Positions 196 through 45,744 of a stretch of 64,000 nucleotides of DNA are shown here, in pieces; position 1 is the first letter of the stretch; each line of letters starts with the position of its first letter. The notes below the pieces were generated by a model. It was not told the DNA's origin. It made no database searches and was given only the letters and a program-made list of their open reading frames with translations. This DNA is from Aquanectria penicillioides. Taxonomy: Eukaryota; Ascomycota; Sordariomycetes; Hypocreales; Nectriaceae. A program made the translations under genes and the position numbers. Where the stretch lies: contig PYIU01000009.1 in NCBI GenBank assembly GCA_003415625.1, positions 62,001 to 126,000 on the forward strand. Reading direction: 5' to 3'.

Positions 196-1298
196 GAGGA
201 GCTGGTTGATTGCACATCGCCTTGTCACTGAAAGTAAACTCCGTTTCCATAAGATACCAGTGGACGTAAAGAGCTGGGTAATCCAGCTAACGGAATCCGG
301 TTGATATGTGAAGGTCCATGTTTAAAGCTTATATTAGACTATAATGGCGCTTGATTAAAGATTCCAATAAATGGATAATATGACATCATCTATGCTAGCT
401 CAACTAATTGCCCAATTACTTGTATTTTGTGATTAATCATAGTGGTTAGCTTACTGGATTATCCTGCGTACTCCTATTTTAATAATTCAACTGCTCCTCT
501 GTATGAGCGAGGAGCATTTGAAGTTTTGCTTGCACAGGCTTTCGGCGCTGTTATATAATCCAAAATCCGGAAATGAATCCGTGGAAATAATGTGAATCTG
601 CTGAAGAACTAATTATTGCCCGCTACTGTCAAGGGTCCCAGAATTCTTCCTATCACTTAAATGACCGTTATAATCAGTAGAAAATAGGACCCCCTCCACG
701 TACAGATGAAGTTTTTCATCGTTATTGAAGAGATTCAATCTAAGTAGTGCAGGGATGGCTGCGGTGACTTGCTCGTTTATGCAGATACATTCATCTTTTG
801 TTGGAAGCGAGGATTATAGGTTTGTTATTAGGGCTATTAGCACAGGCCTCTTGTTGTGTGTATAATATTACTTTCAGTAGGAAAGATTGTGTTTTGCTCA
901 CCTCCAGAGCGCGGGCCGGACGTTATAGAGTATTGATATAAAGGGAAGTATCCATGTCAAGCAAACGATAAATTTGCCACTTACTATTCTTCCCAAATAT
1001 TCTGATACTAGTATTGATCAAAGTTGGTCATTCTCTTGCAGGCAACATGCCAAACCCGAGGCATACCAGAGTCCCATTCTGTCGCCTGAATACCTCGGGG
1101 ACTTGGCCCTCACCAGCAACTTGGGGCCCGCTAGAAGGGCGTCACTTCCACATCGGTCTCCTAACGTTAAGATATAAGTTATGGGGAAAAGTGCAATCGT
1201 TACAGTATATGAGACCCGTTTTTCCCTGCAACAGCTGGTCATGTACCACCGAGTAGCAAAACTCTTCATCAGGCTCGCATCTACGCATAAAGAATATT
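196..1298. promoter_or_regulatory. AT-rich intergenic region; one CCTCGG site before the MFS gene
   Basis: No convincing gene; the short ORFs around 974-1390 are non-conserved. CCTCGG stands at 1093-1098, about 200 bp before the MFS start codon. This is the leftmost copy of a hexamer that recurs before most genes up to 45.3 kb. Confidence 0.5.
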
Positions 1299-2831
1299 AT
1301 GACTACGCAACAAGACCACTACGAGAAGTCAAAGGATCCGAAATGTTCAGATGCGCCTCTGGAAGAGGGCCTCACAGCCGCAATCGTTGATCATGAAGAA
1401 CATTGTGGGCTGAAACTAGGGAATGTAGAAGCCATTGTCGACCCAGAAGAAGTATCCAAGGTCGTCAAAAAGATGGATCTTGTTGTTCTCCCAATAATGA
1501 CAATTGTGCTTGCCTTCTGTTACATTGACCGTGCGAACATGGGCCTCGCCGCGGTAGCAGGCATGACTAAAGAACTAGGCTTCAAAGGCTACGATTTTTC
1601 TATTTCGTTGCTAGTATTCTTCCCTGGATACGCATTGTTCGTCATCCCCAGCAACTACATTCTTCACAAAATATCGGTTCGTCACTGGCTTACACTTCTA
1701 ACTGTCACGTTCGGTCTCTTCACAGTGGGATCGGGCCTCATTCGCAACAAGGCCGGCCTCCTTGCCATGCGTCTGATTTTGGGCATGTGCGAAGCTGGGT
1801 AAGCAATGGGAGACCCGGCTGATGGTATAATAATTACTAATTTGAACAGCGTCTACCCTACCGTTATCATGGTAGTGAGCTCGTGGTATCCCCGCTACTA
1901 TTTTGGGAAACGAATGGCATTTGTGGGCTGTGGTGCCTCTCTGATTGCTTCCCTAGGTGGCGTTCTCGCGTTTGCCTTCTCGCGTGTGAATACTACTGAA
2001 TATGCTGGATGGCGCTGGATCTTCATACTGGACGGAGCAACCACTATTATAGCGGCACTGGCGGCTTTCTTCGTGATTGACGAGTACCCTGAATGGTCAA
2101 GGTTCCTCTCTAAACAGCAACGCGATGTTGCCATCGACTTGATTGCGCAGGACCGAGAAGAGCATAACGAAGAAGTCTTGACTGTCAAGATGGCCCTGAA
2201 ATTCCTTGCCGACTGGAAAATTTGGATTTTCGCAATCATGTACATGTTATGCGTGTCTACGACGTACGGTCTCGCATACTTCATCCCGCTGATTTTGAAC
2301 GGCAAGTTGGGTTTCACGGGAGCGCTCAGCCAGGTCCTATCCACTCCACCATATTTTTACTCAGCGATACTGGCTGCTGGAGTTTCTTGGATTTCTGATA
2401 AGCGTCGCATCAGGTCGCCATTTGTTATCTTCTTATCACTCAATGTCATATTGGGAATCTCATTAACACGATAGGGGCCAAATACTGGGTCTCAGTACCT
2501 GGGATTGTTTTTTGCATTTGGTGGCTCGCTGGTCAATGGCCCTATGATCATCGTCTTTGCACAGAACAACGCGCCGACACGAGCAAAGCGTAGCGTTAGC
2601 TCAGGGCTACAGCTAACCCTAGGCGCCGTGGGAGGGATCATTGGCTCAACCGTATTTCGGTCGCAGGATGCCCCGACTTATACTCCAGGGGTAATTGTTG
2701 TGCTGTGTGGTGCACTTGCAATCATCGGGTTCAGCTGTTTGCTTGCCTCCCGATTCCATCAATTGAATAGGCTCCACGAAGAGAGTGGTACCATCTTGGA
2801 AGGTCAACAGGGTTTTGTCTACACGCTTTGA
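1299..2831 (+). pseudogene. MFS carrier, Dal5/allantoate-permease (ACS) type, with in-frame TAG
   Basis: Exon 1 is 1299-1798 and exon 2 is 1850-2831 (intron GTAAGC to ACAG), coding 493 residues if read through, the usual length for this family. Family hallmarks are ILAFCYIDRANMG-like text after helix 1, the loop GMCEAGVYPT, GWRWIFILDG and the C-terminal RSQDAPTYTPG. These carriers move small organic anions across the plasma membrane, so uptake of the pathway substrate or an acidic intermediate is plausible. The frame is broken by TAG at 2472-2474, inside otherwise conserved sequence (NVILGISLTR, stop, GPNTGSQYLG). A 51-nt segment 2424-2474 (GTTATC to GATAG) could be spliced out in frame, but that would delete most of a membrane helix. 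A sequencing error, recent nonsense mutation or readthrough are the other options. Confidence 0.8.
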
Positions 2832-3300
2832 ACCAGACAGAAGAATTGGATATGATCCTGGGTGGAACCTTGGCAGATTGGATCCGTATGTATATTTGAT
2901 TTGACAACCCCGATGATCTGAATCTAATGATGTGATCATCAAACATGAATGGAATTTTACGTTATTATATATCTTATAATCGCCAAGTTCGATTGGAAAT
3001 GCTACCATTTGGGTTTGCTCAACATCCGTACCACTTGCTATTGCCATCCACAGGCATTTGCAATAGCATGGCGAAATATGGCGCGGATAATGAAGTGCCC
3101 ATTATTCATTGTAGGTCTATGTAATGCATGAAAAGATATGGCTTCAAGGGATTAAGGTCCCTCGGCCGTGATTTATCCTGTCTTTTGCCGAGGATTTATC
3201 AAAGTTTACTTCCGTACAGGTCAATCCCATGTATAACCGAATCAAGTAAACAATTCAGAATAACTCATGACCTCGGCTTCATCGCGTTATAAAGAGCTCA
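2832..3300. promoter_or_regulatory. Promoter of hydrolase 1 with two CCTCGG sites
   Basis: CCTCGG at 3160-3165 and its reverse complement CCGAGG at 3188-3193, 141 and 113 bp before the hydrolase start. The first half is the MFS 3' region. No gene seen. Confidence 0.55.
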
Positions 3301-4293
3301 ATGTCAGACACAGTTTGGGAGTTGATATATTGGCAATCCAAGATCCAAGGCCTCCTGCAACTGGAGCGAGCACCAACCATGCCTTCAAAAGAGTCACAAG
3401 TTATGGCGGATTTGTACTGCAAACTGAGCGCCTTTCTTCGAGCAGAGGGTCTCGACCCAGAACTGTATCGAATCATAATGGAAGAACTGGCAAGTGTGGG
3501 AGCGGAGCCGGCAGATGTTACTTACGAAGAGATCAAATGTCCCGGTACTGTCAGGCCGGCCATCTGGTGCAAACCACTGTCAACTTCTCCATCTCGAGTG
3601 ATTTTGTACCTACACGGAGGAGGATTCATAGGAGGCTCCCCAGCAAGTCACCGAAAAATAGCCGCTCACCTTGCGAAGAAAGCCGGATGTCACGCTATCA
3701 TTATAGACTACCGGAGAGCACCGGAGCACCAATTTCCTAAGCAGATTGAGGATGTTATAGCTACGTATAAATGGTTGATTCATGATAAAGGCATCGCCAG
3801 CAAGAACATTGCCTTTGTGGGAGACTCCGCAGGAGGAAATCTGACAGTCTCTGCCTCGCTTGCAGCAAGAAATCTCGGCCTTGACCCCCCGGCAGCAATT
3901 GTTGCATTCTCTCCCTGGATTGACATGAGATTGACAGGGGAAACCTTTCAGACGAACGCAAGCAGCGATGCACTTGTGGTACATGAAGCTATGCAAGGGG
4001 TGGTCACGGCTTACGTTGGCGGCGCTTCTTTAGATGATCCACTGATGGATTTGCTTCATACTGACCTTAAAGGTCTTCCGCCACTGTATCTAACAGCCGG
4101 GACAAACGAGGTGCTGCAAGATGATGCAGCTCGACTGGCAAATCATGCAAAGTTGGCGGGAATCGATGTGCAGCTAGAATTTGCTCAAGGCATGCAACAT
4201 GTGTGGGTGTTTATGGCCGGACATGCTCCAGAGGCGGATGAGGCCCTTGCTCAGGCTGCGAAATTCATCTGTACAAAGCTTGCAGACTTTTGA
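3301..4293 (+). CDS. Alpha/beta hydrolase 1 (HSL/fold-3 family)
   Basis: Single-exon ORF of 330 residues. It shows the oxyanion motif HGGG (105-108), the nucleophile motif GDSAGG (Ser176) and a C-terminal His300 in GMQHVW. The acid residue lies in GTNEVLQDD (Glu270 or a nearby Asp). DYRRAPEH before the nucleophile is characteristic of the hormone-sensitive-lipase group. Such enzymes hydrolyse short acyl esters and lactones. There is no signal peptide, so it is probably intracellular. It is one of three hydrolases in a cluster with two Baeyer-Villiger monooxygenases, suggesting hydrolysis of a lactone or ester they produce. Two CCTCGG-type sites lie directly upstream. The substrate is unknown. 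Confidence 0.88.
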   Translation: MSDTVWELIYWQSKIQGLLQLERAPTMPSKESQVMADLYCKLSAFLRAEGLDPELYRIIMEELASVGAEPADVTYEEIKCPGTVRPAIWCKPLSTSPSRVILYLHGGGFIGGSPASHRKIAAHLAKKAGCHAIIIDYRRAPEHQFPKQIEDVIATYKWLIHDKGIASKNIAFVGDSAGGNLTVSASLAARNLGLDPPAAIVAFSPWIDMRLTGETFQTNASSDALVVHEAMQGVVTAYVGGASLDDPLMDLLHTDLKGLPPLYLTAGTNEVLQDDAARLANHAKLAGIDVQLEFAQGMQHVWVFMAGHAPEADEALAQAAKFICTKLADF

Positions 4294-5398
4294 TACTTCT
4301 AGTCTAGTTTCATAGTCCCCATCGATACTCAACAAAAACTTGATACATTAAGAGGTGCTCACACAGTACCATGATTTCTCATTGACACGACGAATCCTTT
4401 ATTTATTAATTGTACGTGTCGCCTTTGTTCAACTTGAAAATGTACACACTGGACGAAATGAGCTGGGAGACTTTCAGTAGTGACCAGACTCTACAAGTTG
4501 AATTCATTCTACACTGTTGAATGTACACGGAAAACATGAGTCGCATTGAAATATTGAACCCCTTCGTTCTAGTGTCTTCGCAATCCCGCCAATCTACTTC
4601 CTGTGATACTATTATGCCTTGTGTATCCTTGTTGCTGGATTAGGTATCATAGCCAAGGCAACCTAGATGCCTCGGCAATCACAGCTGAAAGCCGGACACG
4701 ACTTGATGCATCCTTCATGCAGCACTTTGTAACCCAACCTGCGTCTACTAGCCCATTTTCCCATGTTCTGCCCCCTTAGCTTCAGTGTCATGAGTTCCAG
4801 CCTCTTGTAAGCAGTTGAACCTAGGAATGTGACTGGCTGGGCCATCATTCCGGCATGAGGGTCCTATCTGCAACGGAGGCGAGATGACGCAGGTGACAAT
4901 TGCGGGGTGATCGCTTTCAGTTTTTCTTGGAATTGAATTCGGCGCCGATGGCGACCTTGAATCTAGCCTCAAGTCCTTGCCTGACTTTTGATGCATCAAT
5001 GTTACCTCTGTCATACACATTCTTATCTCTGGATCCGCCTCCAGGGGACGCGTCCTTGGTTTTCTTTCATGTTGCGCATTGCGAGCCCCTGCTTATTTAA
5101 CAACATGAGCCCTTGCCCCAGTCTCAATTGTAGATGGTGTGTACCGGCGATTCGGGTCGGGATTTCAAAAACCATATGGGGAAGCGGGGAAGTGAAGAAG
5201 CGGGGAACCATGTCATCTGTGCCGGCTTCCTTAACTATTTGTTGCTTCTCGTCGGTTCAGTCGTGTTATGATGACCTCCCTCTAACCCACCGTTTATCTT
5301 GCATATAGGTAGCCACACTGCCGACTCATTGTGACTTTGATTTTGGCCTTGAAATTGGGCGCACTCATATTAATTGCCTCAGGCCCGGTCTGCTTCAA
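4294..5398. promoter_or_regulatory. Long intergenic region before the Zn2Cys6 gene; one CCTCGG site
   Basis: About 1.1 kb without a supported gene. CCTCGG at 4670-4675 lies 729 bp upstream of the regulator start, farther away than in most cluster promoters. The short ORFs here have no recognisable content. Confidence 0.4.
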
Positions 5399-7895
5399 AT
5401 GGCATCACCAAATCCGAATTCTGATCTCGATCAAGATGCCATTGTCGTCGACCCCAATACTGGTCCTGCTGAAGGATCAGGTCAGAAACGTCCGTCATGG
5501 GATAACAGCAGTGATCGTGCTTCCAAGCGACGCGCATCCAAAGCTTGTCTCTCATGTCGAAACCGCAAGGTGCGCTGTGACGTGGTAAGCGGGGGGCACC
5601 CGTGTACGAATTGCCGCCTTGACAAGCTGGAATGTGTTGTCAAGGAATCCAATCGAGGCCGAAAGCCCGGTCTGACAGCCAGCCACACTGCTCCCGAGTC
5701 TCCTCCTCGTACAGAGCCTACAGCAAATCCATCTCCTCCGCGAGTCGACCCGTCGCTGGTCGCTGACACGCCACCAGCGTCCCCCTCGAGAGCCAACCAG
5801 ACGAGCGACTACCTGGTGTCACTGTCTTTTGAAGGTGAGTCCAGTGAGCGCATCTGCAATGGCTAGGTTGATTTCTTGGACAGGAGGATTAAACTTTGTT
5901 CACTTAGAGCAGCAAGGGCAACCCCAACAGGTTGCTGACGAAATCCATGTTCATGTCGACCCTGGCAATAATCTTGAACATCAAAGCGACCCATTGTCAA
6001 AGGATCAGACCTCTTCAGACCAGCACACAGCACGACCCAGCATTTCACAGCCGCAATCTGAGCCTCATAGCTCATGTCGTCTACCCTCCTATATTCGACC
6101 GCTATCACGCCATCTAGACTTACGAGATCTGCAGTATCTGGCCGACAAGGACGCCCTGACAATCCCTGATGACTCCTTTCGAGACGAGCTCTTGAGAATC
6201 TATGTATACATTGTCTATCCTTTCATGCCTGCTTTAGATCTAGAGGACTTTCTCCACCCCATTCTGCATGGCGATGGGCGCGAGCCTGTAAGCCTGCTTC
6301 TGTTCCAGGCTGTCATGTTTGCCAGCGTAACATTTGTCGATGAAGATATTCTCCGATCCCGTGGCCATAAAAGCAGGAAGGCGGCTCGTAAGGTCTTCTT
6401 CAACCGTGTCCGATTATTGTATGGACTCGACTCTGAGCCAGACCGGCTGCCGCTGCTCCAGGCTGTACTGTTGATGACCTACTGGTACGACTCCCCAGCT
6501 GACGATAAGGATACATGGTACTGGATGGGTATTGCCCTGAGCCTTGCTCAAGTCGTTGGCTTTCATCGTGAGCCAGAGTCTTCTAGAACACCTACGAGGA
6601 AGAGACAGCTCAGGCGCCGCATCTGGTGGTCTTGCGTCATGCGAGACCGACTGTTGGCGTTGGGGATTCGCCGTCCCTCGAGGATTCGAGATGAGGAGTT
6701 CGGGGTTCCTCCGCTTACTATAAATGACTTTGATCTGCATACTCCCTCTGATGCAATCGCCAGCCTTCTTGGAGAGTCAAGGTTAACTGCGTCTGGCCCT
6801 TCAGCTCGCTCAGAGATGGCGGTCATGTGTGTGGAATTGAGTAGACTCTGCGTGTGTCTGGGCCATATCCTACATTCCCAGTACTCGCTTTCTAGCAACC
6901 AACAAGCCGGCTCGGAATTTCTACTGAAAGCCATTGTTGCTCCAAAACAAACCGAAACACAGCTGCAGGACCTGGCCAAATGCGATGCAGAACTCAACGA
7001 GTGGCTCAACAGTCAGGACCACCGTTCAAAGTACACACCGCCGGCGAGAGGGTCCGAGGATAACAACGATGAGGCCACCCGGATCATTAAACTGCACCAA
7101 GCTCTCCTGCAAATGATCTACCTCACCTCCATGGGGGTCTTACATAAGCCCCAAGTCTTCTATTTCGGTTACGAAGGAGCTGATGCTGCTCGCAAGAAGG
7201 CATCAAAGGAAAAGGTCACAGTGGCTGCCATTGCCATCACAAAACTTGCTTTCCATTTACAAACCAGTAATCAACTTCGCTATTTATCCACCAGTAGTAT
7301 TCCCGCGTTCCTATCTGCTAGCCTGATCCATTTGACGGATATTCGTTCGCCTGAAGAGGAGGTCCGCAATATCAGCATCGGCCGCTTCTATCAGTGTGTG
7401 CACGCTTTGCAGGAGCTGCAAGATATGTACGGTTCGGCTGACTATGCCGTCAAGTTTATCGAAGCAGTACTCAGGAATACAGACATTCATGTTCCTGTAA
7501 TGAGGCCTACCATTTGCGTACCCAAGGCCCATGAAACAGGGTCTCGGTTCTCAAGATGGACGTCGAATTGCATATCAGCTGGGCGTCTGGGAACGGCTTA
7601 CCCAAGTCCCTCGAGTTCCAGGAACCAGCAATTACACCAAGAGCCTCCTAATGAGGAATTTGGTGATGTTTTCGAGCCCGATATGCCCGCGCCTCCTAGC
7701 CCCCTCAACGCTCAATTGGCAGCGTGGTCAGCAGTAACAGATGCTCAGTTTGTGGGTAATGAAGTGTCTGGTGAAGGATTGCCAGACCCTTCCTTCATGG
7801 GAGACTGGATCGACATTGACAGTCTCGTCCCTGCATTGACGAGTTTCGAAAATGATAGTAACATGTCTATGCCAAACAATGTAGCATTCATGTGA
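5399..7895 (+). CDS. Zn2Cys6 transcription factor, CTF1/FarA-like, probable cluster regulator
   Basis: Exons 5399-5834 and 5884-7895 (intron GTGAGT to ACAG) code 815 residues. The N-terminal binuclear zinc cluster has Cys50, 53, 60, 69, 72 and 79 (CLSCRNRKVRC, then CTNCRLDKLEC), followed by a basic linker. The middle homology domain starts around 'RIYVYIVYPFMPALDLEDFL' and continues through 'LLLFQAVMFASVTFVDEDIL' and 'WYWMGIALSLAQVVGFHREP', which resembles cutinase transcription factor 1 and the fatty-acid regulators FarA/FarB. In Aspergillus these bind CCTCGG. That hexamer is found before nearly all neighbouring genes, so this protein is the obvious candidate activator. The Ser/Pro-rich region after the zinc cluster and the acidic tail are ordinary for the class. 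Which ligand it senses cannot be read from sequence. Confidence 0.9.
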
Positions 7896-8098: not shown

Positions 8099-9294
8099 TC
8101 ATAGCCTGCTTCTTTTCAAAGCTGCAAAAACATTTTGGTCCCCGATGACGTAGTCTCTCCCCGTTTCCCATCCAAGCCATATCTTCAAGGCCTCCTCACC
8201 TCCTTGTCCGGGCTTGAGGATTTTGGCATTCCATGGATTGACCACGGGCTTCGCAGGCGATCTTTGCAGGTGTACGAGTGGTCTTTGTGAGTAGCCTGAT
8301 CTCTCAAGTTCCTCGTACTCAAGAACTGGGGTAACACACGCATCCAGGTTATCAAAAATAGTCTCCCACTCGCTTCGCGTCTTTTGTTTAAATCTCTCCT
8401 TGAAAATTTGATGCATCTGAGGCCAGAATCTCTTGTCCTCTCTTGGTATGCCACCAATAGTCTCGGGGCTCAACTCCAATCCCCGAAGTAGGTTCGTAAA
8501 GAATTGTGGCTCTAATGCAGCAACTGACATATACTTGCCCGTATCTTTGCATTCATAGCACCTATAAAAAGGACAGCCACCATCTAACAGGTTCGTGCCT
8601 CTGTCAGAACTCCAAACGGGCTCTTTCTTTCGTAGCCGGGGAATGGTTCCCAAGTAGCCGGCGCCATCCACCATGGTCGCCTCCACAACCTGGCCGTTGC
8701 CACTCAAGTTCCGGTGTATGACTGCAAGAAGCACGCCGGCAAATGCTACCAGTCCACCACCGGCATAGTCGGCGAGAATATTGGCCGGTGGAGATGGAGG
8801 CTCACCTGATACACCCAACATGCTAAGGAGACCCGAAACAGCGAGATAGTTGATATCATGGCCAGCTAAATCCTTATATTTTCCATCGCGTCGAAATCCG
8901 GTGAGTCGGAGAACTATTAGGCGCGGGTTGTCTCTCAGGAGGATATTCGGATGAAGTCCTAGCTTCTCCAGGACTCCAGGCCGAAATGGGTCGATTAGGA
9001 CATCAGTCTCAAGGATCAGAGACTTCAGCAAGGCTATGCATGGTGAAGCCTTTAAGTCCAGGACTATTGATGACTTGTAGGATGTGAGAACGTCAGAGTG
9101 ACTTGAGGTGCCCGGCCGATCAACTCGGAGGACGGATGCGCCGAAAGAAGACAGTAACTGGCCACAGAAAGGCCCTAGGGAGTCCTTAGTTCCGATTGAT
9201 ACTAGAGAGGCATAGAAAATCAAGCCAACGTACCAGGAGCTAAACCGGCAAGCTCAAGAACTCGTATATCTTTCAGTGGATGGGCACCAGACAT
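8099..9294 (-). CDS. Alpha-methylacyl-CoA racemase (CoA-transferase family III)
   Basis: Exons complement(8099-9174, 9234-9294); the intron is GTACGT to CCCTAG, and the product has 378 residues. The N terminus (LELAGLAPGPFCGQLLSSFG, then VDRPG) follows AMACR rather than a general CaiB/BaiF transferase. Catalytic residues of the racemase are visible: His126 in AGHDINYLAVSG and Asp156 in ADYAGGG, with LLDGGCPFY and a conserved Glu following. AMACR interconverts (2R)- and (2S)-2-methylacyl-CoA so that methyl-branched chains can enter beta-oxidation. The C terminus KRSRL ends in SRL, a PTS1 peroxisomal signal. It is divergent from the thioesterase across a region with four CCTCGG/CCGAGG sites. 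The precise substrate is unknown, but a 2-methyl-branched acyl-CoA is strongly implied. Confidence 0.9.
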
Positions 9295-10485
9295 TCCGAC
9301 GATGGGGATGTTGGCAGTTGCACTTTTCAAGGGAATGAAATCGTTAAAAAGATTCAAGGGCCCTCAAGTGCAGCTAATTAGGAGACGATACGACCTTGAA
9401 CCGTGCTTGTTGTCATCGATCGTGTACGCTTGGAAGAGCTCGTTAGTTTGTTGGCCATGATGATCAATACGTTGCTCATACCTGGTGGCTGCTCTTCTTG
9501 CCTTCTATATGTGCATCTGTGTCCCGATGTGGTCTGCGTTTATCTTGTCCCCTTAAGATAATTGGGAACAAGCCCGCTTAAGTTCATGCATGCTAGTGCA
9601 GCAAACCTACTTGCAACGTCTGAACATATGCGGGTTGGCAATTGAGAATGTCGTCTCCGGAACCTCCAACTAGCCGAGGATAGAATTCCTAACCGAGGAG
9701 ACAAGAAACAGTATAATTCGAGAAAATTCTAAAGATAATTATGGACACTATTGTTGTAAATTTCTGTTTCTTACAGCTTCATTTTCTCTAATCCTCTCAG
9801 TGCTTGTTCTGTCCGAATGAACTCGCGTGCCTCTTCCTGATTGTCCTTTGTATCAGAAATAGGAAGTGAAGCTCGTGAAACTGACCTGGTGCAAATGGAG
9901 GAACTCTCGGGTTTTGTGAGTAGAATCTTCGAGATGGGTGTATCATCTAAAGGTGATACGCCTTTTTCCAGACTCATTCATCACTGTACATGTTGATTCC
10001 GGTGGGTCGCTTTACATATTGGAGACCCTGATGTGAACTAGGACTTGAATAATTGGCTCTATGGACTCATTGATTTCCACAGATTACCACGATAGACCGC
10101 GTTGATTGAAGGTTCCAATAGTTTAAATCCTCCTACGTGGATAATTTGGTCATTGTGGGTCCACTTTAGTCGCATCCCGCGATCAACCAGAATCGAAGCT
10201 ACCCTGTAGCCTCGGCTGAAATTAGTAACCTCGGGTACTTGATAGTGGACTGGCAAGTAATTGATGGCTGCAAGGTCAGCCCCTATGCGGACTTCTGGTT
10301 GTCACTACTCGTAAGTTGTGTATTTCTATCTCAGGATGATGTAGACGAAGCCATTTCCTGTAGATAATACTTCACTACGTGACTTAAAAGCATTTAATCA
10401 AGCCGGCGCCATACAACGCAAGGCCATAGATTCTCGGTCCATAGTCAGCCTTCACCCAAAGGCGACACATATATGACAATTCTCG
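9295..10485. promoter_or_regulatory. Divergent promoter (racemase / thioesterase) with four CCTCGG-type sites
   Basis: CCGAGG at 9674-9679 and 9693-9698 (380-400 bp before the racemase start); CCTCGG at 10210-10215 and 10229-10234 (250-280 bp before the thioesterase). On the minus strand about 10059-10310 reads as a coding-like stretch (YRVASILVDRGMRLKWTHN) that might be an ankyrin-like remnant. It has no clear start or continuation, so I do not call it a gene. Confidence 0.55.
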
Positions 10486-18852: not shown

Positions 18853-19196
18853 CCTTGTTAGCGCTAGTAGAGCAATGAAGGCGTAGGAGGTTACCTGTCA
18901 CCACTACAGCCAATCTGAACTTATTATGAGAATTTCAGCGAGAGGCTCTCATCTTCAGCACATGATTATTGCCCAAGGTCTCAATTGCCAGAATACGGGA
19001 GGTTGCTAGATTGCCGATAAAGCCGAGGGTTCTCGGATCATGCCTACTTTCGCAGTGGCGTAGCACAGACCTAACATGGTCTAGTCAAACTCCAGTGTAC
19101 CTCGACAACGACCATCACGTAAATAAACCCAATGTCTAATTCTTCACTGTGAATCAACACTATTAGATTTAACGCCAACTTCTCGAAATCATCATC
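18853..19196. promoter_or_regulatory. Bidirectional promoter, kinase / acyl-CoA dehydrogenase, one central CCGAGG
   Basis: A single CCGAGG at 19023-19028 lies almost exactly midway, about 170 bp from both start codons, so one bound regulator could drive both genes. Confidence 0.6.
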
Positions 19197-35811: not shown

Positions 35812-37034
35812 GTTGTGTGACAAGTGGTAATTTGGAATATACGCAGGGTATTCTGAGATTTTCCACGGGGTATGGCGATAAATACATCAAATATGTAGAC
35901 ATACCGACGCTTTTGACTGAGTCTCTTGCAACAAACTAACAAAAAGCCGAAGGGACATGAATGATTGCTTGCTGAGTTGAATCGGAATTGTTCCGTAAAG
36001 TTATCGTGCTCAAGAGAAGAGCTTCTATGAGATCAAATTAGGACAGCCGAGAGTGCATGTGAACGAGACGGGATGGTTCCGGTAGTGATACAGTGTGTGC
36101 ATCATACATGGATACGACAAATAATCTATACCTGTCTCGAAGACTGTCACAGCCATAGGACCTAAGTCTTCGACCAAATCGGTTGGCCACTTGATGTCCG
36201 GGACTTGTAAGCCGTGTTCAACAATGAGTTCTTGACTTTAATTTCGTCAATACATCTTATTTATCACGATTTTCTAAATTCGAACTGGTCCAAAGCTCGT
36301 ACTTTGGTGGACACGGCGGCTGGTTCCTGTATCAGGGGAGAAGTTGTGTTCTCCTAATGGTCTCACTTTCATCATTCCAACAACCAATACCCAAGATTCG
36401 TGATGTTAGAAGTTCCTTGAAGCAAAGGCTCGTGATCTAAGGGACGCGGATATCTCTACTGCACGGTCTTCACTTCTGTCCACTTCGCCTATTGAAGAGA
36501 CTCCTTGCTAGCTGAAAGATTTTGAAGTAGAGACAAACCGAGTCCGCAGATGAGAACATCATTATGACCCTAAGAGTTCCAGCATGATGGGTGTTTTGCA
36601 ACTTATGGTATCTAGAAGGTATTACTCCCTGCCATGATCGTTCCGCATACTTTTGATCCTGACCTAATCACTGTGTGGAACCGAGAGTATATCACATCCG
36701 AAGGCTCTGTCAACGTGTCCATACGATATAGTGCTCAAGGGTGGCTTGTCTCGAGCTCAAACCTAAAACACCATCACAAGTACGGCAATTAGTCTCGGCA
36801 CTTATCAAATGTTAATGGAATTCTTATAGGCAGGCACCTAAGCCTTTGCACCATTAGCGTCTTTTTACCACTAGCGTGATGCGGAGATGCAGCGATGCCG
36901 AGGCACCAGATCTCGGATGTCGGGATGATCCCGCTGCCAAATGAGCGACATGGTAAACTCTGCGAGAAATGGGCAATATAGGGGCTATGGCCTCTTGACA
37001 CTGCATCCCATCTTACCATGCCTTTATCGCACAC
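35812..37034. promoter_or_regulatory. Divergent promoter, alcohol oxidase / hydrolase 3
   Basis: 1.2 kb without a gene. CCGAGG at 36898-36903 lies 137 bp before hydrolase 3. On the oxidase side there is only CCGAGA near 36048. Confidence 0.5.
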
Positions 37035-38325
37035 ATGACGCTTGCAAGAAATCCCAGATTCCTTGCGGCAATGACTGTGAATTTATCTGCCACTGAAAAA
37101 CTTCGGCTAGCATGGCGCCTAACATGTGTTGGTACGAGAAACCCCATATTCTCATCAAGTTTACTCCTCGAGCCACCTGTAATACTAATGCCTTGCTCTA
37201 GTACCAGGGAAAATAGCCCTGACCGTGGTGCGTTCTCTCTTCATGGCCTGGGTACGCGGCATTCCTCCGCGCATGTACCTTGCCTGTGGATTCGTCAGAG
37301 TGTTCCTGGGAACATTCACGCCACGTGAGATCCAGTGCCTTTCTCCTCCAACAAGGGAATGCTACAGAGCATGGGTTCAACGCAAAACGGCCGACACCAA
37401 GAAAAATACCCAGTTGGGGACTGTGGGTATAAAAGTCGATATCGAGTCTTTGGAAGACGGCAAGTCTTCGCTGCTCTGGCTTGGAAACCGCGAAAAGGCC
37501 AAGAAAGTGGTACTGTTTTTCCATGGTGGCGGCTACATTGCACCTCTCCTTCCTGGCCACCTAGAGTGGTGTTGGAGAGCATATGTGTGCGCGGGGCTTG
37601 ATATGGGCGTTGAAGTTGCTGTGGCAATCCTCGAATACACTCTTTGCCCCAATTCAAGCTATCCAGGCCAGCTCTGTCAAGCTGCGAGTGGCCTTCTTCA
37701 TCTTCTTCAATCTGGCTTTCGACCGCAGGAAATCATCATTGGCGGAGATTCTGCAGGCGGAAATCTATCAGCCCAGTTGATCTGCCACCTGATACAACCC
37801 CACCCGACGGTTACACAGATTGAGCTTGCTGAACCACTTGCTGGCGCATTTCTCGTCTCACCTTGGCTCTCTCAACATACTAGCGACTCGTCATTTTTAG
37901 AGAACCGCTGGATCGACATGCTTTCGGCATCAATTGTGGACAAATCCACCAATCAGATATTGAGAATCGGAAATACAAATTTGGACCGGAAAACTCTTGA
38001 TGCGCTCGTGTTCCCTGCGGGGATGTCGGGATCCTGTTATCGGGGATTTTCCAAAGTCTTGAGTCGCATGCATGTTACTGCAGGGAGGCATGAGGTTTTT
38101 CACGATCAGGTAGCACAATTTGTGTACGAGGTTCAGCACTTGAACCCGATGCTAAAGGTGCAACATGACATTCAAAAGCACGCCGCACATGATTTCATCC
38201 TTCTTGAAGGCCAAGAGGAGCGTAACGGGGAGTATATGGAAGCTATGAAAACATGGATGCGCGGCGTGTTGAAGGAAACCCATGTCACACCAATCGCTGT
38301 GAGCACTGCAACTATTGAGTCGTAA
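37035..38325 (+). CDS. Alpha/beta hydrolase 3 (steryl-acetyl-hydrolase-like)
   Basis: Exons 37035-37131 and 37202-38325, 406 residues; a start at 37071 (MTVNLSATEK) is also possible. A hydrophobic N-terminal region (IALTVVRSLFMAWV) precedes the hydrolase fold, which has HGGGY (FFHGGGYIAPLLPGH), GGDSAGGNLSAQ with the nucleophile, and HAAHDF with the C-terminal His. The layout, an N-terminal hydrophobic stretch plus a HSL-type catalytic domain, is like fungal Say1-type steryl acetyl hydrolases. Ester hydrolysis of a lipophilic pathway intermediate is inferred, not shown. CCGAGG is 137 bp upstream. Confidence 0.85.
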
Positions 38326-38685: not shown

Positions 38686-40420
38686 TCAGTAAAACCCGTC
38701 CAATGCCGAAATCCGATTCTTCAGGAACTTCCACAGCTCCGGAAGCTTTTGATCCCTCGATCTGAACATCAAAACATATAGAATTGCCATTACTATCCCT
38801 CCCCATATTAGTGGGGATAGGCGCTGGACTCTTCTCCCATCTCGATCGAACCAGACCTTATCGGTCGGTCTAAAGGTCTTTGCCAAAGTAGCTGCAGTCT
38901 TTTCCGTGTACGGTGGGTACTTGGAACCCAGTACCAGATCTAACCACTTTGGAATGTCAACAACCGTTCTCATATGAGTGAATTCTTTGAAACCATAGGC
39001 CCCATGGTATGCGCCAATTCCAGAGTGCCCGGCTCCGCCAAATGGAGCACCTTCGGCGAGCATGTGTACGATTGCATCATTGATAGACACTCCACCAGAT
39101 GTGGTTAAGCCTAGTATGCGTTCCTTTTCAGCGTGTGATGTTGTGAACGGATACAAAGCCAAGGGAGTTTCCCGACTTGTAGTGTGCTGGATAGCCTCGT
39201 CCAATGTTGCCTCTAAAATTGGTAGAATAGGACCAAACAACTCTTCAGACATCAATGAATCTGAAGGCGAGACATCGACAACGATAGTTGGGGTAAACGC
39301 CAGGCTCTTAACATCACATTCTCCGCCGTAGATGATTTTGCCGGATGTCTTATCGAGGAGGGCCTTGAGGCGATTGAAATTCCGCTCGTTAACAATATGC
39401 GAGTAATATGATGGAAATTTCGTGCCACCGGAGAGGAATTTATCAAAGTATTTGATTAGTGCGATCACGAATTTCTCCTTGACGGCCGGATCAACAAATA
39501 CGTGGTTTACAGTCAAGCACACCTATTCCACATGTAAGCATCAAACTATGGATACTTAGAAATAAACACTCACCTGTCCAGCGTTGAGAAATTTTGCGGC
39601 CGCGATTCTTTTAGCTGCAAGTTCAACATCTGCATTTGCAGAAACTATCGCAGGGCCTTGGCCTCCAAGCTCCAAGGTGACGCTAGTAAGGTGCTTTGCT
39701 GCCTTTTCATAGATAATTCTACCAACCTTTGTTGATCCTGTGAAGAAAATGTGATTCCATCTCTTTTGCAAAATGTATTCCATCTCCCTTGGCCCAGCTG
39801 TTACAACCTGAATGGCATCCTGGTCCAAGTATTTGGGAATGATTTCTTCAATCAGCTTTTGTGAGGACAGAGCTACCTCGCTGGGTTTGAGAACCACACT
39901 ACATCCTGCAGCAATCGCGGAGATCATTGGCTCCAGAAGTTCCATGAATGGGTAATTCCAAGCAGACAAAATTAGAGCTACACCCTTCGGCTCTTTCCGG
40001 ACTCTGGACTGGCCGAAGAGGTTCAGGGCATCGAGTCTTGATGGCTTTTCATCTGTTGTCCATTGCCCAATGTTCTTGAGCACGTACAAGCAGGTTGTTT
40101 GTATGCCGTAGACATCAACTGTAATAGCTTCAAGGCGATGCTTGTGTAAATCGTCGTGTAAAGCCTGGACGATCCTCTCCTTGTTATCCTCTAACATCCA
40201 CCAAACCTTCTGAATTTGGAGGACGCGCCAGTGGATTTATTTGGTCTTTTGGGAAGCGAATGCTGCGACGGCATTGGAGTGTACCTGGGCCAATTTGAGT
40301 CAGAAATCCGACACAATGATTCAACACCTCTCGTGGCTGTGAAACTTCGTGTGAAGACGGTGGGGTATGAAAATCACAAGGAGCTACCTGATCAATGTGT
40401 GCTTGCGAACTGAACACCAT
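38686..40420 (-). CDS. Class-3 fatty aldehyde dehydrogenase with C-terminal anchor; in-frame TAA near the N terminus
   Basis: Exons complement(38686-39522, 39574-40284, 40388-40420). The catalytic Cys is in NAGQVCLTVNHVFVD, Glu in LELGGQGP, and APFGGAGHSGIGAYHG is typical of ALDH3. The C-terminal helix SPLIWGGIVMAILYVLMF anchors it in ER or peroxisomal membrane, as in human FALDH and yeast Hfd1. It oxidises fatty aldehydes to acids. The predicted N-terminal exon reads VHSNAVAAFASQKTK, stop, IHWRVLQIQKVWWMLEDN with TAA at 40237-40239, where homologs have coding sequence. Translation from the ATG at 40197 gives 486 residues lacking about 35 N-terminal ones. Use of a later acceptor (exon from 40209) would skip the stop in frame. 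Confidence 0.82.
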
Positions 40421-40987
40421 TTTGACTCGCACTAGGAGGCAGATCTTCTAAGCGATGTTGCGTATTGTACTAGCGCAAGCCCTGTGCGTTGGATGAATGG
40501 GCCGAGTGTCAACTGTGTTGAGAATCGGTGAAGATGAATTGGCGTGGTATAGTCTCCACAAGTACCTAATCACCCCCTCCCAAGTCTACCATCAGCCTCG
40601 GACTAGCACGAGGCACCGAGGGAGACCTTTCAGACACAAATTCTTTTCTTCCATACAGTCCGACGGAACCAATCCGTCTACGGTCATCTTCAGTCGAAGT
40701 GACTACTTGGCGTGCTACCCTAGAGCAAGGCAGCATTATGCCGAGGCTGAATGACAAGAACCCCGCTTCATCACACCCATAGGAGATGAGCTGAAAGAGG
40801 CACATCTCCTAGTGCTGGTAAATATAGCTTAGGAGCAACCGATTTAGGCTTAGTCTACTGGGTGTCTCATGTGGGAAGTTAACCGAATGAACACCGCCAC
40901 CTGCAATGTGAAATGTGAAGAAGGAAGTGAAGCAAACAGTTGATCAAATTGCAACGAAAGCTAAAATAAACATTCAAAAACACAACA
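40421..40987. promoter_or_regulatory. Aldehyde dehydrogenase promoter, three CCTCGG-type sites
   Basis: CCTCGG at 40596-40601, CCGAGG at 40616-40621 and 40741-40746, 176-321 bp before the dehydrogenase start. The first two form an inverted pair separated by 14 bp, as before P450-1. The right part is the BVMO 2 3' region. Confidence 0.6.
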
Positions 40988-43050
40988 TTAGCCCCTTAAA
41001 TAGGACCACGCAAAACAATCTCGAAAGTTGATAGAAAGTTTGTTTCGGGTGTTATCCTGGGCAGCTTTGGTGTTGAGACCGGCCGGCTTCTGGCTGATGA
41101 CGGGTGTTGTTGATCCGTCTCCACTAATTATATCCATGACCACTTGAGGATGCATTTTCGCTATACCCTTCATCCCCAACCACCTATTTCAAGTTGATGC
41201 AACGTCTCATTTGTTGGACAATAACGGGGAGGTACCTGGTGAGATCGCCATGATACCTCCAACCCAAATAGGATAAACTTATTAGGGACAATACACCTCC
41301 GAGGAGAACCCAGGTCCTCATTAACCTCTGGAATAATGGAAAGTGCGTGGAGTTGTTTGTGCCCTACAGTCGTTAGTTTTGTTTGTCAACAAGACCGTTG
41401 CCCGTTGGCAATGCTCACCGCGATTGTCCAGTCGCTCCATTTCGGGAACAAGCTGCGATACCAAAAGTGAGCTTGCGAATACGGGTAGCTCATCGCATTC
41501 CACGTGCGGTCTTTGGCTACAGTTTCTTGGATGTACCAGCTCTGGCACCCAGAGTTCCACACGGTTTTCCCCAGATCGTTTTGGATTCGGTCAACATAGG
41601 CCATCTCAGCGCCGTTCCTGAGCTCAACTACGCCTCTCTCACTTTCTAGTATTGGCTTGATGATACGAAGTGCATAATTGATGCTGTTTTCGGATGCCAT
41701 AATAGCAGATGTATGGCCTGTAGCGGCATTGGGACCTGATTGGCAAAACCCATTAGCCTGTCTGACCATGATAAAAGCATGCGATGTAGGAACTAACCGA
41801 GAAGAATGAAAAAGTTCGGGAACCCATTCATGACGGAACAATTGTAGGCTTCGGCTCCCCCAAATGAATCCCAATGTTGGGTCAAATTTTCCCCTCGCCC
41901 AACGACCTCAATGCCTCCAAGAAATTTATTAGTGACATACCCATTAGCCAATACGATGACGTCTGCTTCAATAATGCCCCGTGCAGTCCTGACGCCCTCT
42001 GGTACGATTTCTAGAGCCCGATCGTCTGTCAGGGTTAGATTGATAGCATGCAAACAATCCAGATACCCGGAATCGAAAATCCTTCGTTTACAACCAACTT
42101 CGAAATCTGGAATCAAAATGTCGTGATACTTGACCGGGGCTCTCGACTTCATGTGCTTCTCAGCCTGAGTGAGCCGTTTTCGGCGAAAGACAGCAGCAGA
42201 TTCAGTCATGGGAAATCCTCTCAACTCATTTTCCGCGACAAGGAAGATAATTAAACGCTGAAGTGCCATGCTGCCTGGGATGAACTTGAATAGAAGCCGG
42301 ATCATATTGGTATTGACACTGTCAATTGCAGGAAGAATCCAGTGTTTAGATCGCACAATTTGGGTGAGATGCTTCGTTTTTTCGACGATGGAGGGTACAA
42401 TTTGCGCAGCTGTGCAACCATTTCCAAATACAACCACTCTCTTATCGTTGAGGTCAACATCGTCCCTCCACTTAGATGAATGAAAGATTGGGCCGGCAAA
42501 GGTCTGGGCTCCTGGTACATCCAGTTCTCTGGGTTGAACTAACTGACCCGCTGCAGTAAATAGAAATTGTGACTCGTGGGTAAAGACTTTGCTTGTCTTC
42601 ACGTCGCGTATGTGCAATCGCCACCGCTTTGTTTCTTCAACCCACTCACACTTTTCGACATTGACTCCAAAAGTCATTTTTGTTGGAAGCGAGTATTTTT
42701 CGGCTACTTGTTTGAGATAATTCAAAAGTTCTTCATGGGAAGGCAAGACTCTAGTCCAGTGTGGGTTGGGCTCGAAGGAATAACTGTATAGTGCACTTGG
42801 AACATCGCAGGCACACCCTAGTCGGTCAGTACGCTGCCTTTTCACATCTCAATATCATTTCTTCGCGGGCAATACCTGGATATTTGTTCGTAAACCAAGT
42901 CCCTCCTAAATCAGAATGCCTGTCGAAGAATTTGATATCTTCAATTCCGTACCATCGTTTCAATGTTGCCCCGAGACCGATAGCGGAGAAACCGGTGCCG
43001 ATACACGAAAAGCGGCTATAGCCGTGTTGCTTTTCATCCTGGAGATCCAT
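40988..43050 (-). CDS. Baeyer-Villiger-type flavin monooxygenase 2 with C-terminal membrane helix
   Basis: Five exons, complement(40988-41183, 41236-41363, 41419-41735, 41798-42817, 42876-43050), 611 residues. N-terminal GTGFSA is the FAD motif; GGTWFTNKYPGCACDVPS is restored by splicing. The BVMO fingerprint appears as FAGPIFHSSKW, and GNGCTAAQIVPS is the NADPH site. The last exons code WVLLGGVLSLISLSYLGW, a likely membrane helix, and a hydrophilic tail. It resembles the shorter fungal HAPMO-like monooxygenases and is clearly different from BVMO 1. Ketone to ester or lactone conversion at a membrane is inferred. CCGAGG lies 217 bp before the start. Confidence 0.88.
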
Positions 43051-43924
43051 TCCAAACCGATTATTATCGACAATAATAAGTGATATAGAGCTTTAGGGAT
43101 GATTTCGGGTGCTCGATTGCTTTATAATTAACAAATGCAACTATCATCAAGGGGCATGTGACCGACCTGCTCAGTGCCCTATTTAATACCCTTTGGGCTC
43201 ATGGCCAAACTAAGCCAATGCCTACAATCCCGGCTACTTTGCCACAAAGAATCACAACAATAACATCCGAGGTTCTTACTCCTCCGTATGTCGTGGGAAG
43301 CGGGGAAGCTGTTGGTCATGGAGCTTAGACAGTCACCAGTCGGCATGGCCCCGAATCGCCGGAACAGTTCCGTGCCACAAGCAGTCATGTTGGGGATCTA
43401 GAAGTGGAAATTTATACCTGGAAGAAACCTTCAACAAAAATTTATGGCTGATGGCAGGATTGACGCTGGTGATCAGAAACTTGCGAAGCTGTTTCGAGGT
43501 TGAAGAGATGGGATCATGCCACTATTTGGCTGTCCATGTAAACCAAGTAGACTAAGCCATTCAAATCGCTAGCTCCATCAAAGGTTAAATTATCTAATAT
43601 ATTGAGGTTTGGATTTCATGGGTGTCGGCGTATTAAATGATCCATATTCACAAAGTCTCATCATTCACATGTTGCTGCTTTGATGCTACCACTTGCAATT
43701 CAATTGACTAAATGTACGCCCTAATTAGTCATTTTTATCTCTTGGATGGACCATGCTTAAATCAGTCTTTGATAAACAAGATTTACATCTTGTAAAACAC
43801 GTATTCAAAAAGTACCTGCAGCGCAGACCCGTGTCGCCATGAAGCCCACCTTTCAGATCAGACATCACAGGCAATACCATCGGTGTTGCGCGCTCAAAAC
43901 CTTGCCAAAGCATCGAACATTATG
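43051..43924. promoter_or_regulatory. BVMO 2 promoter with one CCGAGG
   Basis: CCGAGG at 43267-43272, 217 bp before BVMO 2. The remaining 650 bp is the SDR3 3' side with no gene. Confidence 0.55.
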
Positions 43925-45133
43925 TCAGTTGCCACAAGCTTGTATCAGTCTGCCCGTTTTGGGGTCGACCTGCTGTCTTCCTCTGAAGTCAACCCCTAGT
44001 TTGTTTGTTCTCTCCCTCGCCAATCTCCACATCCACTCTGGACCTCCTTTCTATGGTAGCGAATTAGGGTCCGCGAGCCATCTTCATTTCTAACTAAGAC
44101 TCACCATGATAGCAACATACCGCATTACCCCGGGCATGTATACCGTCCTCCCGTATCCACTGTGCAAGGTTTCGGTGAGCGTTTCACACACCGTCTCGAC
44201 GTCCAAAAGAGGGAACAAAAAGTTTGACTGTTTCGTGTCCCCTTTAAATAATGGTGTTCGGATGAAACTGAATATGCCGAGTGACAATCTTACTCGAGGG
44301 GCTTTGTGGATATTTCTTAACTCTAGTTGCAGTGCCTACAAATGTCAATTCCATAACAAACATATGGGTTAAATTTAACCGCAGCTCACTTCATGCAGCG
44401 CTATCAAGCCGGCCTTGGATGCCGCGTAATCCGCTACCCGGCTCGGTGGGAGCAGCGCACTCATTGAGCTAATATTCACAATGTGACCGTGATTTTGAAG
44501 CACCATATTTGGTAAGAATTCCTTTACGAGCAGGAATGGAGCAATAAGGTTAGTCTGAATGGTAAGCTGGACATCACTATAGTCACCCTCGCAAACGGCA
44601 AGACCACGACAGATGCCAGCATTATTGATAAGAACTGTGGGATTGCCAACTTCGTGACGAACTTTGTCGCAAACCAGCCGGATTTGAGTCGAGTCGCTGA
44701 GATCACACTGGTAATAGTTGATGGAAGAGTGTGGAGGAGGTTTCCAATTCAATGGCACGTAATCGATAATCACAATCTTCGTCTGTGAATGCCGCGCATG
44801 GAGGTGTTGTGCCATGTGAGCTCCGATTCCGCTGCTCCCTCCTGTAATAACGACAATCTCTTTCTCCCAATTCCAATCCCCGCTCGGTTCCCAGTTGTTG
44901 TTATATCTTCCATTAACAAACTCGGTGATGGAGAACAAAATGCTGCAGACCGCGAGGATGTATATAATGATCTGAGCATAGCTCAAGATACGAGCATGGG
45001 CTAGTATCAGTGCATTGGAGGGGCTCCAATACGTACCAAGTGCCAATGGTACAAGTATGAAGGGGTTGAAAATACTTCTCAGTGCGATTGTGCCAACAAC
45101 GTCAGCTGTAAATCCTTCTCGAGAAAAATACAT
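43925..45133 (-). CDS. Membrane-anchored SDR3 (17-beta-HSD11/RDH10-like, SDR16C)
   Basis: Exons complement(43925-44050, 44105-44335, 44390-45133), 366 residues. An N-terminal hydrophobic segment (YAQIIIYILAVCSILFSITEF) precedes the Rossmann domain with VVITGGSSGIGAHMA, INNAG, NISSMSAL and YAASK, the full catalytic set. The C-terminal helix region (MKGGPEWMWRLARERTNKLG) is like that of the SDR16C family, which oxidises or reduces steroids, retinoids and other lipophilic alcohols in ER or lipid droplets. That fits a terpenoid or steroid substrate but does not prove it. CCTCGG lies 134 bp upstream; this is the last promoter on the right with the motif. Confidence 0.88.
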
Positions 45134-45744
45134 GGTTTGTGACAGTGTGGAATTGATGCTTGATAGCTACTGGTTTCGTATGAGAAGCGAAGGGTTGCAG
45201 CCAACCAACCCAAGCCCTTTTATTGCTTCTGGGATACATAACATCGGCATACACGAACTTGTTGAGCCTCGGGTGTCGGGATGCACCCGTCGAAAGGCGG
45301 GGGCTGAGGATTATATTCCGCCGTCTCTTCAATGCCCAACCTGTGTGCTCTGTCGGCGAGGTAATCTGATGAACTGGATCTCAAGACTCGAATCCTGTTG
45401 CCTCATGATAATATTCGCGGCTTTATTTGATTTCTTACTTTTAATCCTGTATTTATAGATCCGAAGACCACAAGTGATCTCTATAGTACAATAGTTGTCA
45501 ATCGGTTATACAGCGCCGAGCCGATGACAACTGATTTTCGCAATTGCAATATAATGCATTTATTTATTATCAAGATTAGATCATAGTACAACTTTCATTA
45601 AACGTCATGCAGCATCTTTCCATCAGTCAATGTAGGTAAATAGTGGATAACAGGAATAGATTTTCGGTTGAAGAAATCATGGATCTACTGAAACAAATTG
45701 CAACCTAAGATTACTGAAAGCTACGATCAGCATATATCTAACTA
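45134..45744. promoter_or_regulatory. SDR3 promoter with CCTCGG; right limit of the motif series
   Basis: CCTCGG at 45267-45272. No gene is supported here. To the right the motif is not seen again in a promoter position. Confidence 0.55.

What the first reader, a model, noticed from the sequence alone, without database searches (positions are those of the whole stretch)
1093..45272. CCTCGG/CCGAGG hexamer marks nearly every promoter from 1 to 45.3 kb and defines one large regulon
I counted about 31 intergenic copies: 1093, 3160, 3188, 4670, 9674, 9693, 10210, 10229, 13669, 13706, 13747, 16514, 17089, 17455, 19023, 20825, 20867, 22292, 22337, 25617, 25637, 27233, 27419, 28733, 32753, 36898, 40596, 40616, 40741, 43267, 45267. 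Chance expectation for roughly 20 kb of intergenic DNA is about 10. Most sites lie 110-380 bp before a start codon, they serve both genes of divergent pairs, and convergent 3' regions lack them. FarA/FarB/CTF1 regulators are known to bind CCTCGG, and the cluster encodes a protein of that type at 5399-7895. This gives the cluster a regulatory definition with sharp limits.
Basis: partly seen in the sequence, partly recalled or inferred. Interest (0 to 1): 0.88.

Follow-up and report, generated by a model that had tools for sequence, protein, structure and literature searches.

The report
Shared promoter code in fungal cluster
Near a fungal chromosome end lies a run of about 35 breakdown-pathway genes, nearly all with the same six-letter DNA site at nearly the same distance before the gene, beside genes for two regulators of a family reported to bind that site, so the run looks like one jointly controlled unit.

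Summary
All 31 listed CCTCGG/CCGAGG copies exist. Beyond the window's left edge the pattern continues about 28 kb towards the telomere. In C13:30001-107272 I modelled 36 genes; 32 have a site within 500 bp upstream of the ATG, against 4.55 +/- 2.09 (maximum 13 in 1000) for shuffled copies of the same promoters. With mechanical gene models: 25 of 36, against 25 of 83 elsewhere. CCGAGG ranks first of 2080 hexamers in cluster non-coding DNA, and again in the left flank alone. 47 of 58 intergenic sites lie 100-300 bp before an ATG. Sites stop at 45.27 kb. The cluster encodes two Far/CTF1-type Zn2Cys6 proteins, the family reported to bind CCTCGG (PMC5068947, passages). Gene content (four BVMO/FMO-type monooxygenases, esterases, beta-oxidation, a joint HMG-CoA-lyase/hydratase frame) suggests breakdown of a cyclic isoprenoid. 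Best reading: one subtelomeric catabolic cluster driven through CCTCGG by resident Far paralogs. Binding, expression and substrate are untested.

The parts
1056..2831 (+). MFS transporter gene 1299-2831 with sites 1056 and 1093 (238 and 201 bp upstream)
3160..4293 (+). alpha/beta-hydrolase (Abhydrolase_3) gene 3301-4293 with sites 3160, 3188, 3271
4670..7895 (+). TF1, Far/CTF1-type Zn2Cys6 regulator gene 5399-7895 (intron 5835-5883, 815 aa); only site 4670, 724 bp upstream
8099..9698 (-). CoA-transferase family III gene 9294-8099 with paired sites 9674 and 9693 (19 bp apart)
10210..11568 (+). acyl-CoA thioesterase II gene 10486-11568 with paired sites 10210 and 10229 (19 bp apart)
11990..13752 (-). 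SCP-x-type thiolase gene 13459-11990 with sites 13669, 13706, 13747
14206..16519 (-). BVMO1, Baeyer-Villiger-type monooxygenase gene 16300-14206 with site 16514; further sites 17089 and 17455 lie 789 and 1155 bp upstream
17495..19028 (-). APH-type phosphotransferase gene 18852-17495; site 19023 shared with the divergent gene 19197-20552
19023..20552 (+). acyl-CoA dehydrogenase gene 19197-20552 with shared site 19023
20825..21951 (+). alpha/beta-hydrolase gene 21004-21951 with sites 20825, 20867
22292..23213 (+). 240-aa protein with weak PQ-loop similarity, gene 22491-23213, with sites 22292, 22337
23640..25642 (-). cytochrome P450 gene 25374 to about 23640 with sites 25617, 25637 (20 bp apart)
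26170..27424 (-). SDR gene 27063 to about 26170; sites 27233, 27419 shared with the divergent YCII gene
27580..27915 (+). YCII-domain gene, shares sites 27233 and 27419
28661..29931 (+). SDR gene about 28947-29931 with sites 28661, 28733
31617..32758 (-). small ORF 32051-31617 without Pfam match; nearest site 32753 is 702 bp upstream (weak member)
33302..35811 (-). GMC oxidoreductase gene; no site within 1 kb upstream (exception)
36898..38325 (+). alpha/beta-hydrolase gene 37035-38325 with site 36898
38686..40746 (-). aldehyde dehydrogenase gene 40420-38686 with sites 40596, 40616, 40741
41240..43272 (-). BVMO2, FMO/BVMO-like monooxygenase gene 43050 to about 41240 with site 43267
44090..45272 (-). 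SDR gene 45133 to about 44090 with site 45267; last gene of the cluster on the right
45750..49441 (.). outside the regulon: divergent P450 (47498 to about 45750, -) and amidohydrolase (48274-49441, +); their 775-bp gap has no site

Best explanation
CCTCGG is the operator of one cluster-wide regulon of about 35 genes near the end of contig C13 (about C13:34.4-107.3 kb, i.e. window about -27.6 to 45.3 kb). One or both resident Far/CTF1-type Zn2Cys6 proteins (TF1 at 5399-7895; TF2 at about C13:53.9-56.2 kb) bind it, mostly 100-300 bp before the start codons, and switch on a catabolic pathway when its substrate or an acyl-CoA of it is present. The pathway probably opens the rings of a cyclic isoprenoid (terpenoid or steroid) by Baeyer-Villiger oxidation and ester hydrolysis and degrades the product by CoA activation, beta-oxidation and a hydratase/HMG-CoA-lyase step. 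Shown: the sites, their enrichment and position, the gene families, the regulator family, linkage in other fungi. Inferred: binding, which regulator, activation, inducer, substrate.
For: 32 of 36 hand-modelled promoters against 4.55 +/- 2.09, maximum 13, in 1000 dinucleotide shuffles. Mechanical models: 25 of 36 against 25 of 83; control hexamer 6 of 36 against 22 of 83. 47 of 58 intergenic sites at 100-300 bp, none at 400-700. Convergent gaps hold 2 sites in 5.5 kb, divergent gaps 20 in 7.3 kb, tandem gaps 36 in 14.2 kb. No promoter-to-promoter similarity that could explain the sites. Two Far-type Zn clusters in the cluster. The family is reported to bind CCTCGG (PMC5068947, passages). Close linkage of TF1 relatives and a relative of a left-flank acyl-CoA dehydrogenase in seven other fungi.
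Against: No binding or expression data. Four of 36 genes lack a site within 500 bp, among them TF1 itself (724 bp) and the GMC oxidoreductase. The hand models were built with the sites known. With a stricter mechanical model (ORFs >=200 aa, 500 bp) the contrast is weaker: 20 of 32 against 18 of 55, p 0.007. In the left flank alone the first rank is not significant after correction (p 2e-4, Bonferroni 0.42). 25 of 83 background promoters also have a site, so a site alone is not diagnostic. The genome has many Far-like genes.
Confidence: 0.8

Rival explanations
1. The sites are real operators but are read by the genome's global FarA/FarB proteins; the cluster is a dense patch of the ordinary fatty-acid regulon and the two resident regulators do something else.
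For: The global regulators are reported to bind the same hexamer (PMC5068947, passages); a better counterpart of an Aspergillus Ctf1B protein than TF1 exists on C10; TF1 has no near site of its own.
Against: Two Far-type genes lie inside the cluster, and TF1 relatives are linked to a cluster gene in seven other fungi, which a purely global control would not need.
Confidence: 0.35
2. There are two abutting regulons, a left one under TF2 and a right one under TF1, with the same operator by common descent of the regulators.
For: Two different Far-type genes, about 11 kb apart; Aspergillus nanangensis also has two TF1 relatives on one contig.
Against: Site density and distance are alike on both sides. 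Fusarium nematophilum holds TF1, a window gene and a left-flank gene within 12 locus tags.
Confidence: 0.25
3. The hexamer is a general promoter or composition feature, or was spread by duplication of a promoter or a mobile element.
For: CCTCGG is common in the genome (32,933 copies on both strands against 28,776 for the reversed word) and 25 of 83 background promoters have it.
Against: Blind ranking, background promoters and shuffles; 37 intergenic stretches show no cross-similarity except one repeat pair outside the sites and one element with inverted ends; flanking columns are near random apart from a C after the hexamer in 29 of 58; the next promoter right of the limit has none.
Confidence: 0.05

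Closest known systems
FarA/FarB regulon of Aspergillus and CTF1alpha/CTF1beta of Fusarium solani (PMC5068947, PMC4117967: passages seen)
   Same: Same operator CCTCGG, same regulator family by sequence, beta-oxidation genes among the targets.
   Different: As described in the passages, targets are listed as individual fatty-acid and cutinase genes; here 32 of 36 neighbouring promoters share the site, two Far paralogs sit among the targets, and the enzymes point to a cyclic isoprenoid.
Terpene-responsive gene cluster of Grosmannia clavigera (30 genes; PMC3680317, PMC8120277, PMC4368105: passages seen)
   Same: Large fungal cluster with Baeyer-Villiger monooxygenases and beta-oxidation genes for terpenoid use.
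   Different: I saw no operator or Far-type regulator reported for it in the passages; gene-by-gene homology was not tested.
FarA/FarD control of ferulic acid use in Aspergillus niger (PMC10512302: passages seen)
   Same: A Far-family regulator used beyond fatty acids.
   Different: FarD lacks the Zn2Cys6 domain; TF1 and TF2 have it.
Cluster-specific Zn2Cys6 activators of fungal biosynthetic clusters (AflR-like; recalled)
   Same: Local regulator with a repeated operator across a cluster.
   Different: Catabolic content, and a regulator family known for global control.

Membership tests
Far/CTF1 transcription factor family (TF1) | Far-type Zn2Cys6 DNA-binding domain plus PF04082 | tested here: met
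   Zn cluster matches relatives named CTF1 beta; PF04082 E 1e-28
Far/CTF1 transcription factor family (TF1) | Binds CCTCGG | not testable with these tools
   Family property from PMC5068947 passages; only the sites in the cluster were shown here
FarB/CTF1beta ortholog in the strict sense | Best counterpart of a canonical Ctf1B in this genome | tested here: not met
   Aspergillus Ctf1B P0095: pieces of C10:2113593-2116619 sum to 602 bits, TF1 pieces to 533. F. oxysporum P0054 does match TF1 best
Far/CTF1 family (TF2) | Far-type Zn2Cys6 domain plus PF04082 | tested here: met
   Zn_clus and Fungal_trans in neighbouring frames; Zn cluster 59% identical to TF1; exon structure not resolved
Far regulon | CCTCGG in target promoters | tested here: met
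   32 of 36; 25 of 36 with mechanical models
Far regulon | Induction by fatty acids through FarA/FarB | not testable with these tools
   No expression data
Fungal metabolic gene cluster | Contiguous pathway genes with a local regulator, conserved as a linked set | tested here: met
   Pfam content; close linkage in seven fungi
Fungal metabolic gene cluster | Co-expression | not testable with these tools
   No expression data
Isoprenoid (terpenoid or steroid) catabolic cluster | Ring-opening BVMO, CoA activation, branched-chain beta-oxidation ending at HMG-CoA | tested here: inconclusive
   Family resemblances present; no substrate shown; not compared with the G. clavigera cluster

The most novel reading that the evidence does not exclude
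Far/CTF1 paralogs have multiplied in these fungi as heads of separate catabolic clusters that all keep the operator CCTCGG, and specificity comes from site arrangement and inducer sensing, not from operator sequence. In this cluster 7 of 17 close neighbour pairs are 16-20 bp apart, about two helical turns, in every orientation (0.3% of 20,000 jittered trials fill any 5-bp bin as much). Direct pairs at exactly 19 bp occur 11 times in 53.8 Mb, two of them in the single CoA-transferase/thioesterase promoter. A second Far-type gene, on C1 near 191.2 kb, has five sites around its start (190992-191220) and 21 in 15.2 kb; that region was picked partly because its sites looked dense.
Probability: 0.3. 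Interest if true: 0.75.

Novelty: new variant of a known kind. Interest (0 to 1): 0.58.

Why it matters
Fungal gene clusters are often delimited by gene content alone. It would move the Far/CTF1 family from dispersed control of fat use towards heads of local pathway clusters, raises the question of how many paralogs with one operator stay specific, and names a candidate gene set for fungal breakdown of cyclic isoprenoids, for which one review says that the only characterised fungal terpenoid-detoxifying enzymes are from G. clavigera (PMC8120277, passage, 2021).

Tried and rejected
General promoter feature: rejected on a sample of background promoters and blind ranking. Spread by duplication or a mobile element: rejected. 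Raw copy density without separating coding DNA: uninformative, since the word is frequent across the genome. The spaced inverted pair CCTCGG N15-40 CCGAGG as the true operator: 169 genome-wide against 121 for the reversed control, and pair orientation in the cluster is mixed, so no single palindromic site. GMC oxidoreductase N-terminal part: no PDB relative at E 0.001. Promoters of the linked loci in other fungi: no tool at hand holds that DNA. Literature: searches with CCTCGG and FarA, CTF1 and cutinase (28), gene cluster and Zn2Cys6 (48), a catabolic combination (49, no hits), CTF1 with gene cluster and catabolism (66) and BVMO/subtelomeric/degradation cluster (67) listed no title or abstract start that describes a cluster-wide CCTCGG regulon; most listed papers were not opened, and most subscription papers are not held. 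Papers were seen as passages found by term, none in full. Rows dropped before counts: L021, L022, L027, L030 (19-28% GC) and L001-L004 (fetched because they carry site pairs) were left out of the background; C13:1-30000 (mostly 20-26% GC) was left out of the cluster.
Full report
WHAT IS THERE. The window is bases 62001-126000 of contig C13 (3.51 Mb) of a fungal genome of 53.76 Mb in 13 contigs. C13 begins with telomere repeats, followed by about 29 kb of mostly 20-26% GC, so the window lies near a chromosome end. All 31 listed hexamers are present. The stretch 1-45272 has 44 copies: 35 intergenic and 9 in genes by my models.

IS IT MORE THAN CHANCE. Three tests agree. First, density: with ORFs of 100 aa or more masked, non-coding DNA holds 1.96 sites per kb in window 1-45272, 0.15 in the rest of the window, 0.33 in the next 60 kb and 0.64 in nine 10-kb stretches (five from C13, two from C1, one each from C3 and C6); other masks change the figures but not the contrast. 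Second, blind ranking of all 2080 hexamers (strands merged) in the whole cluster: CCGAGG/CCTCGG is first, 45 in 23.5 kb against 24 in 52.2 kb, p 5e-9, Bonferroni 1.1e-5. Third, promoters: with mechanical gene models (ORFs of 150 aa or more, first ATG, 500 bp) 25 of 36 cluster promoters have a site (10 of 16 left of the window, 15 of 20 in it) against 25 of 83 elsewhere (12 of 34 right flank, 13 of 49 sample), Fisher p 7e-5; the reversed control hexamer gives 6 of 36 and 22 of 83. Over the six settings tried, p ranged from 1.5e-5 to 0.007.

THE LEFT EDGE IS WRONG. It encodes an alpha/beta-hydrolase of another family at its left end, a multifunctional beta-oxidation protein (MFE-2), an alcohol dehydrogenase, two acyl-CoA dehydrogenases, an HMG-CoA-lyase/enoyl-CoA-hydratase frame, an Abhydrolase_3 protein, two BVMO/FMO-type proteins, a CoA ligase, SDR and NmrA proteins, a second CoA-transferase, a mitochondrial carrier and a second Zn2Cys6 regulator, TF2. 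I take it as the same cluster and as an out-of-sample check of the motif.

POSITION. With hand-built models of 36 genes (15 left, 21 in the window) 32 have a site within 500 bp upstream of the ATG: 14 of 15 and 18 of 21. Dinucleotide shuffles of these promoters give 4.55 +/- 2.09, maximum 13 in 1000. The exceptions are the leftmost hydrolase (none), TF1 (724 bp), a small ORF (702 bp) and the GMC oxidoreductase (none within 1 kb). The hand models were made with the sites known, so the mechanical result is the fairer one. Of 58 intergenic sites, 47 lie 100-300 bp from the nearest downstream ATG, 3 at 300-400, none at 400-700, 1 at 25 and 7 beyond 700. Gene spans (51.1 kb) hold 17 sites, intergenic DNA (26.2 kb) 58. 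By gap type: divergent 20 sites in 7.3 kb, including the empty pair right of the limit; tandem 36 in 14.2 kb; convergent 2 in 5.5 kb. Eight of nine divergent pairs of the cluster have a site within 500 bp of both ATGs. The divergent P450/amidohydrolase gap right of 45.27 kb (775 bp) has none, so the right limit holds.

SITE ARRANGEMENT. Neighbouring intergenic sites 60 bp or less apart have spacings 7, 16, 17, 19, 19, 19, 20, 20, 28, 37, 37, 41, 42, 45, 46, 50, 55. Seven of 17 fall at 16-20 bp, in mixed orientation; with sites jittered by up to 40 bp, a 5-bp bin as full arises in 0.3% of 20,000 trials. Direct pairs at exactly 19 bp occur 11 times in the genome, twice in the promoter at 9674-10234; the control read backwards gave 14, so the pair is not enriched genome-wide, only concentrated here. 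The base after CCTCGG is C in 29 of 58. A comparison of 37 intergenic stretches found no similarity that could explain the sites by duplication; one repeat pair and one element with inverted ends were the only sizeable hits.

THE REGULATORS. TF1 (5399-7895, intron 5835-5883, 815 aa) has a Far-type Zn cluster and PF04082. Its best relative is from Dactylonectria macrodidyma (67%), and several of the 120 listed of 880 relatives are named cutinase transcription factor 1 beta. The CTF1/Far family is reported to bind CCTCGG (PMC5068947, passages). TF2 (about C13:53.9-56.2 kb) has the same kind of Zn cluster. The genome has many further Far-like genes. An Aspergillus Ctf1B protein matches C10:2113593-2116619 better in total than TF1 (602 against 533 bits, summed over pieces), so TF1 is best called a cluster-resident paralog; a F. 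oxysporum protein named CTF1 beta matches TF1 best.

OTHER FUNGI. Contig lengths and locus tags in the best-120 lists of TF1 and of the left-flank acyl-CoA dehydrogenase show close linkage in seven: Fusarium decemcellulare (tags 2922/2903), Aspergillus nanangensis (3989/3998; a second TF1 relative at 4010), F. nematophilum (5611/5616, with the PQ-like protein 5604), F. avenaceum (1971/1976), Fusarium sp. NRRL 66182 (4145/4150), Cladophialophora psammophila (6205/6189) and Dothideomycetes sp. NU459 (7290/7306). At least four more share a contig length only. The linked regulators are 41-64% identical to TF1 and need not be the same paralog. No DNA of these fungi was at hand, so promoters could not be compared.

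FUNCTION. BVMO1 is closest among solved structures to 5mq6 (E 1.3e-149), which I recall as a polycyclic-ketone monooxygenase. The left BVMO3 is closest to steroid monooxygenase 4ap3. BVMO2 and the left BVMO4 were seen only as FMO-like in Pfam. The thiolase is of the SCP-x/lipid-transfer kind. One open frame joins the C-terminal part of an HMG-CoA lyase to an enoyl-CoA hydratase whose best solved relative is 4zu2, putative isohexenylglutaconyl-CoA hydratase, an enzyme of acyclic terpene use (recalled). With several esterases, CoA-transferases, a CoA ligase and a thioesterase this suggests ring opening and beta-oxidation of a branched cyclic isoprenoid. That is inference from families.

VERDICT. 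The mark is real and cluster-wide. The Far/CTF1 explanation is the best available, but binding is unshown. The left boundary must be moved about 28 kb out of the window. I class it as a new variant of a known kind: a known operator and regulator family, organised as a contiguous regulon with two resident paralogs.

Noticed in passing
C13:1-29000 (window about -61999 to -33000): Telomere repeats at base 1, then about 29 kb at mostly 20-26% GC with TpA/ApT about 1.4-1.6, as in repeat-induced point mutation.
   Followed up: partly
window 30024-30652: About 630-bp element with 47-bp terminal inverted repeats (91% alike), MITE-like; its ends match seven other places in the genome.
   Followed up: partly
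window 11722-11988 and C13:56762-57059: Inverted copies of a repeat of about 300 bp, 76% identical, in two intergenic stretches of the cluster.
   Followed up: no
L008:8178-9596 (-): One open frame holds the end of an HMG-CoA lyase and an enoyl-CoA hydratase closest to isohexenylglutaconyl-CoA hydratase: possibly a fused two-step isoprenoid enzyme.
   Followed up: partly
L002, L031, L032 and L001 (C1:184772-200000): Second region with a Far-type Zn2Cys6 gene (near 191.2 kb) and 21 CCTCGG copies in 15.2 kb, five of them around its start; partly chosen for its site density.
   Followed up: partly
window 2472: In-frame TAG in the MFS transporter frame (1803-2831): either an unrecognised small intron or a nonsense change.
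   Followed up: no
window 22491-23213: 240-aa protein of unknown function with weak PQ-loop similarity; 37 relatives found, the named ones all fungal, one linked to a TF1 relative in F. nematophilum.
   Followed up: partly
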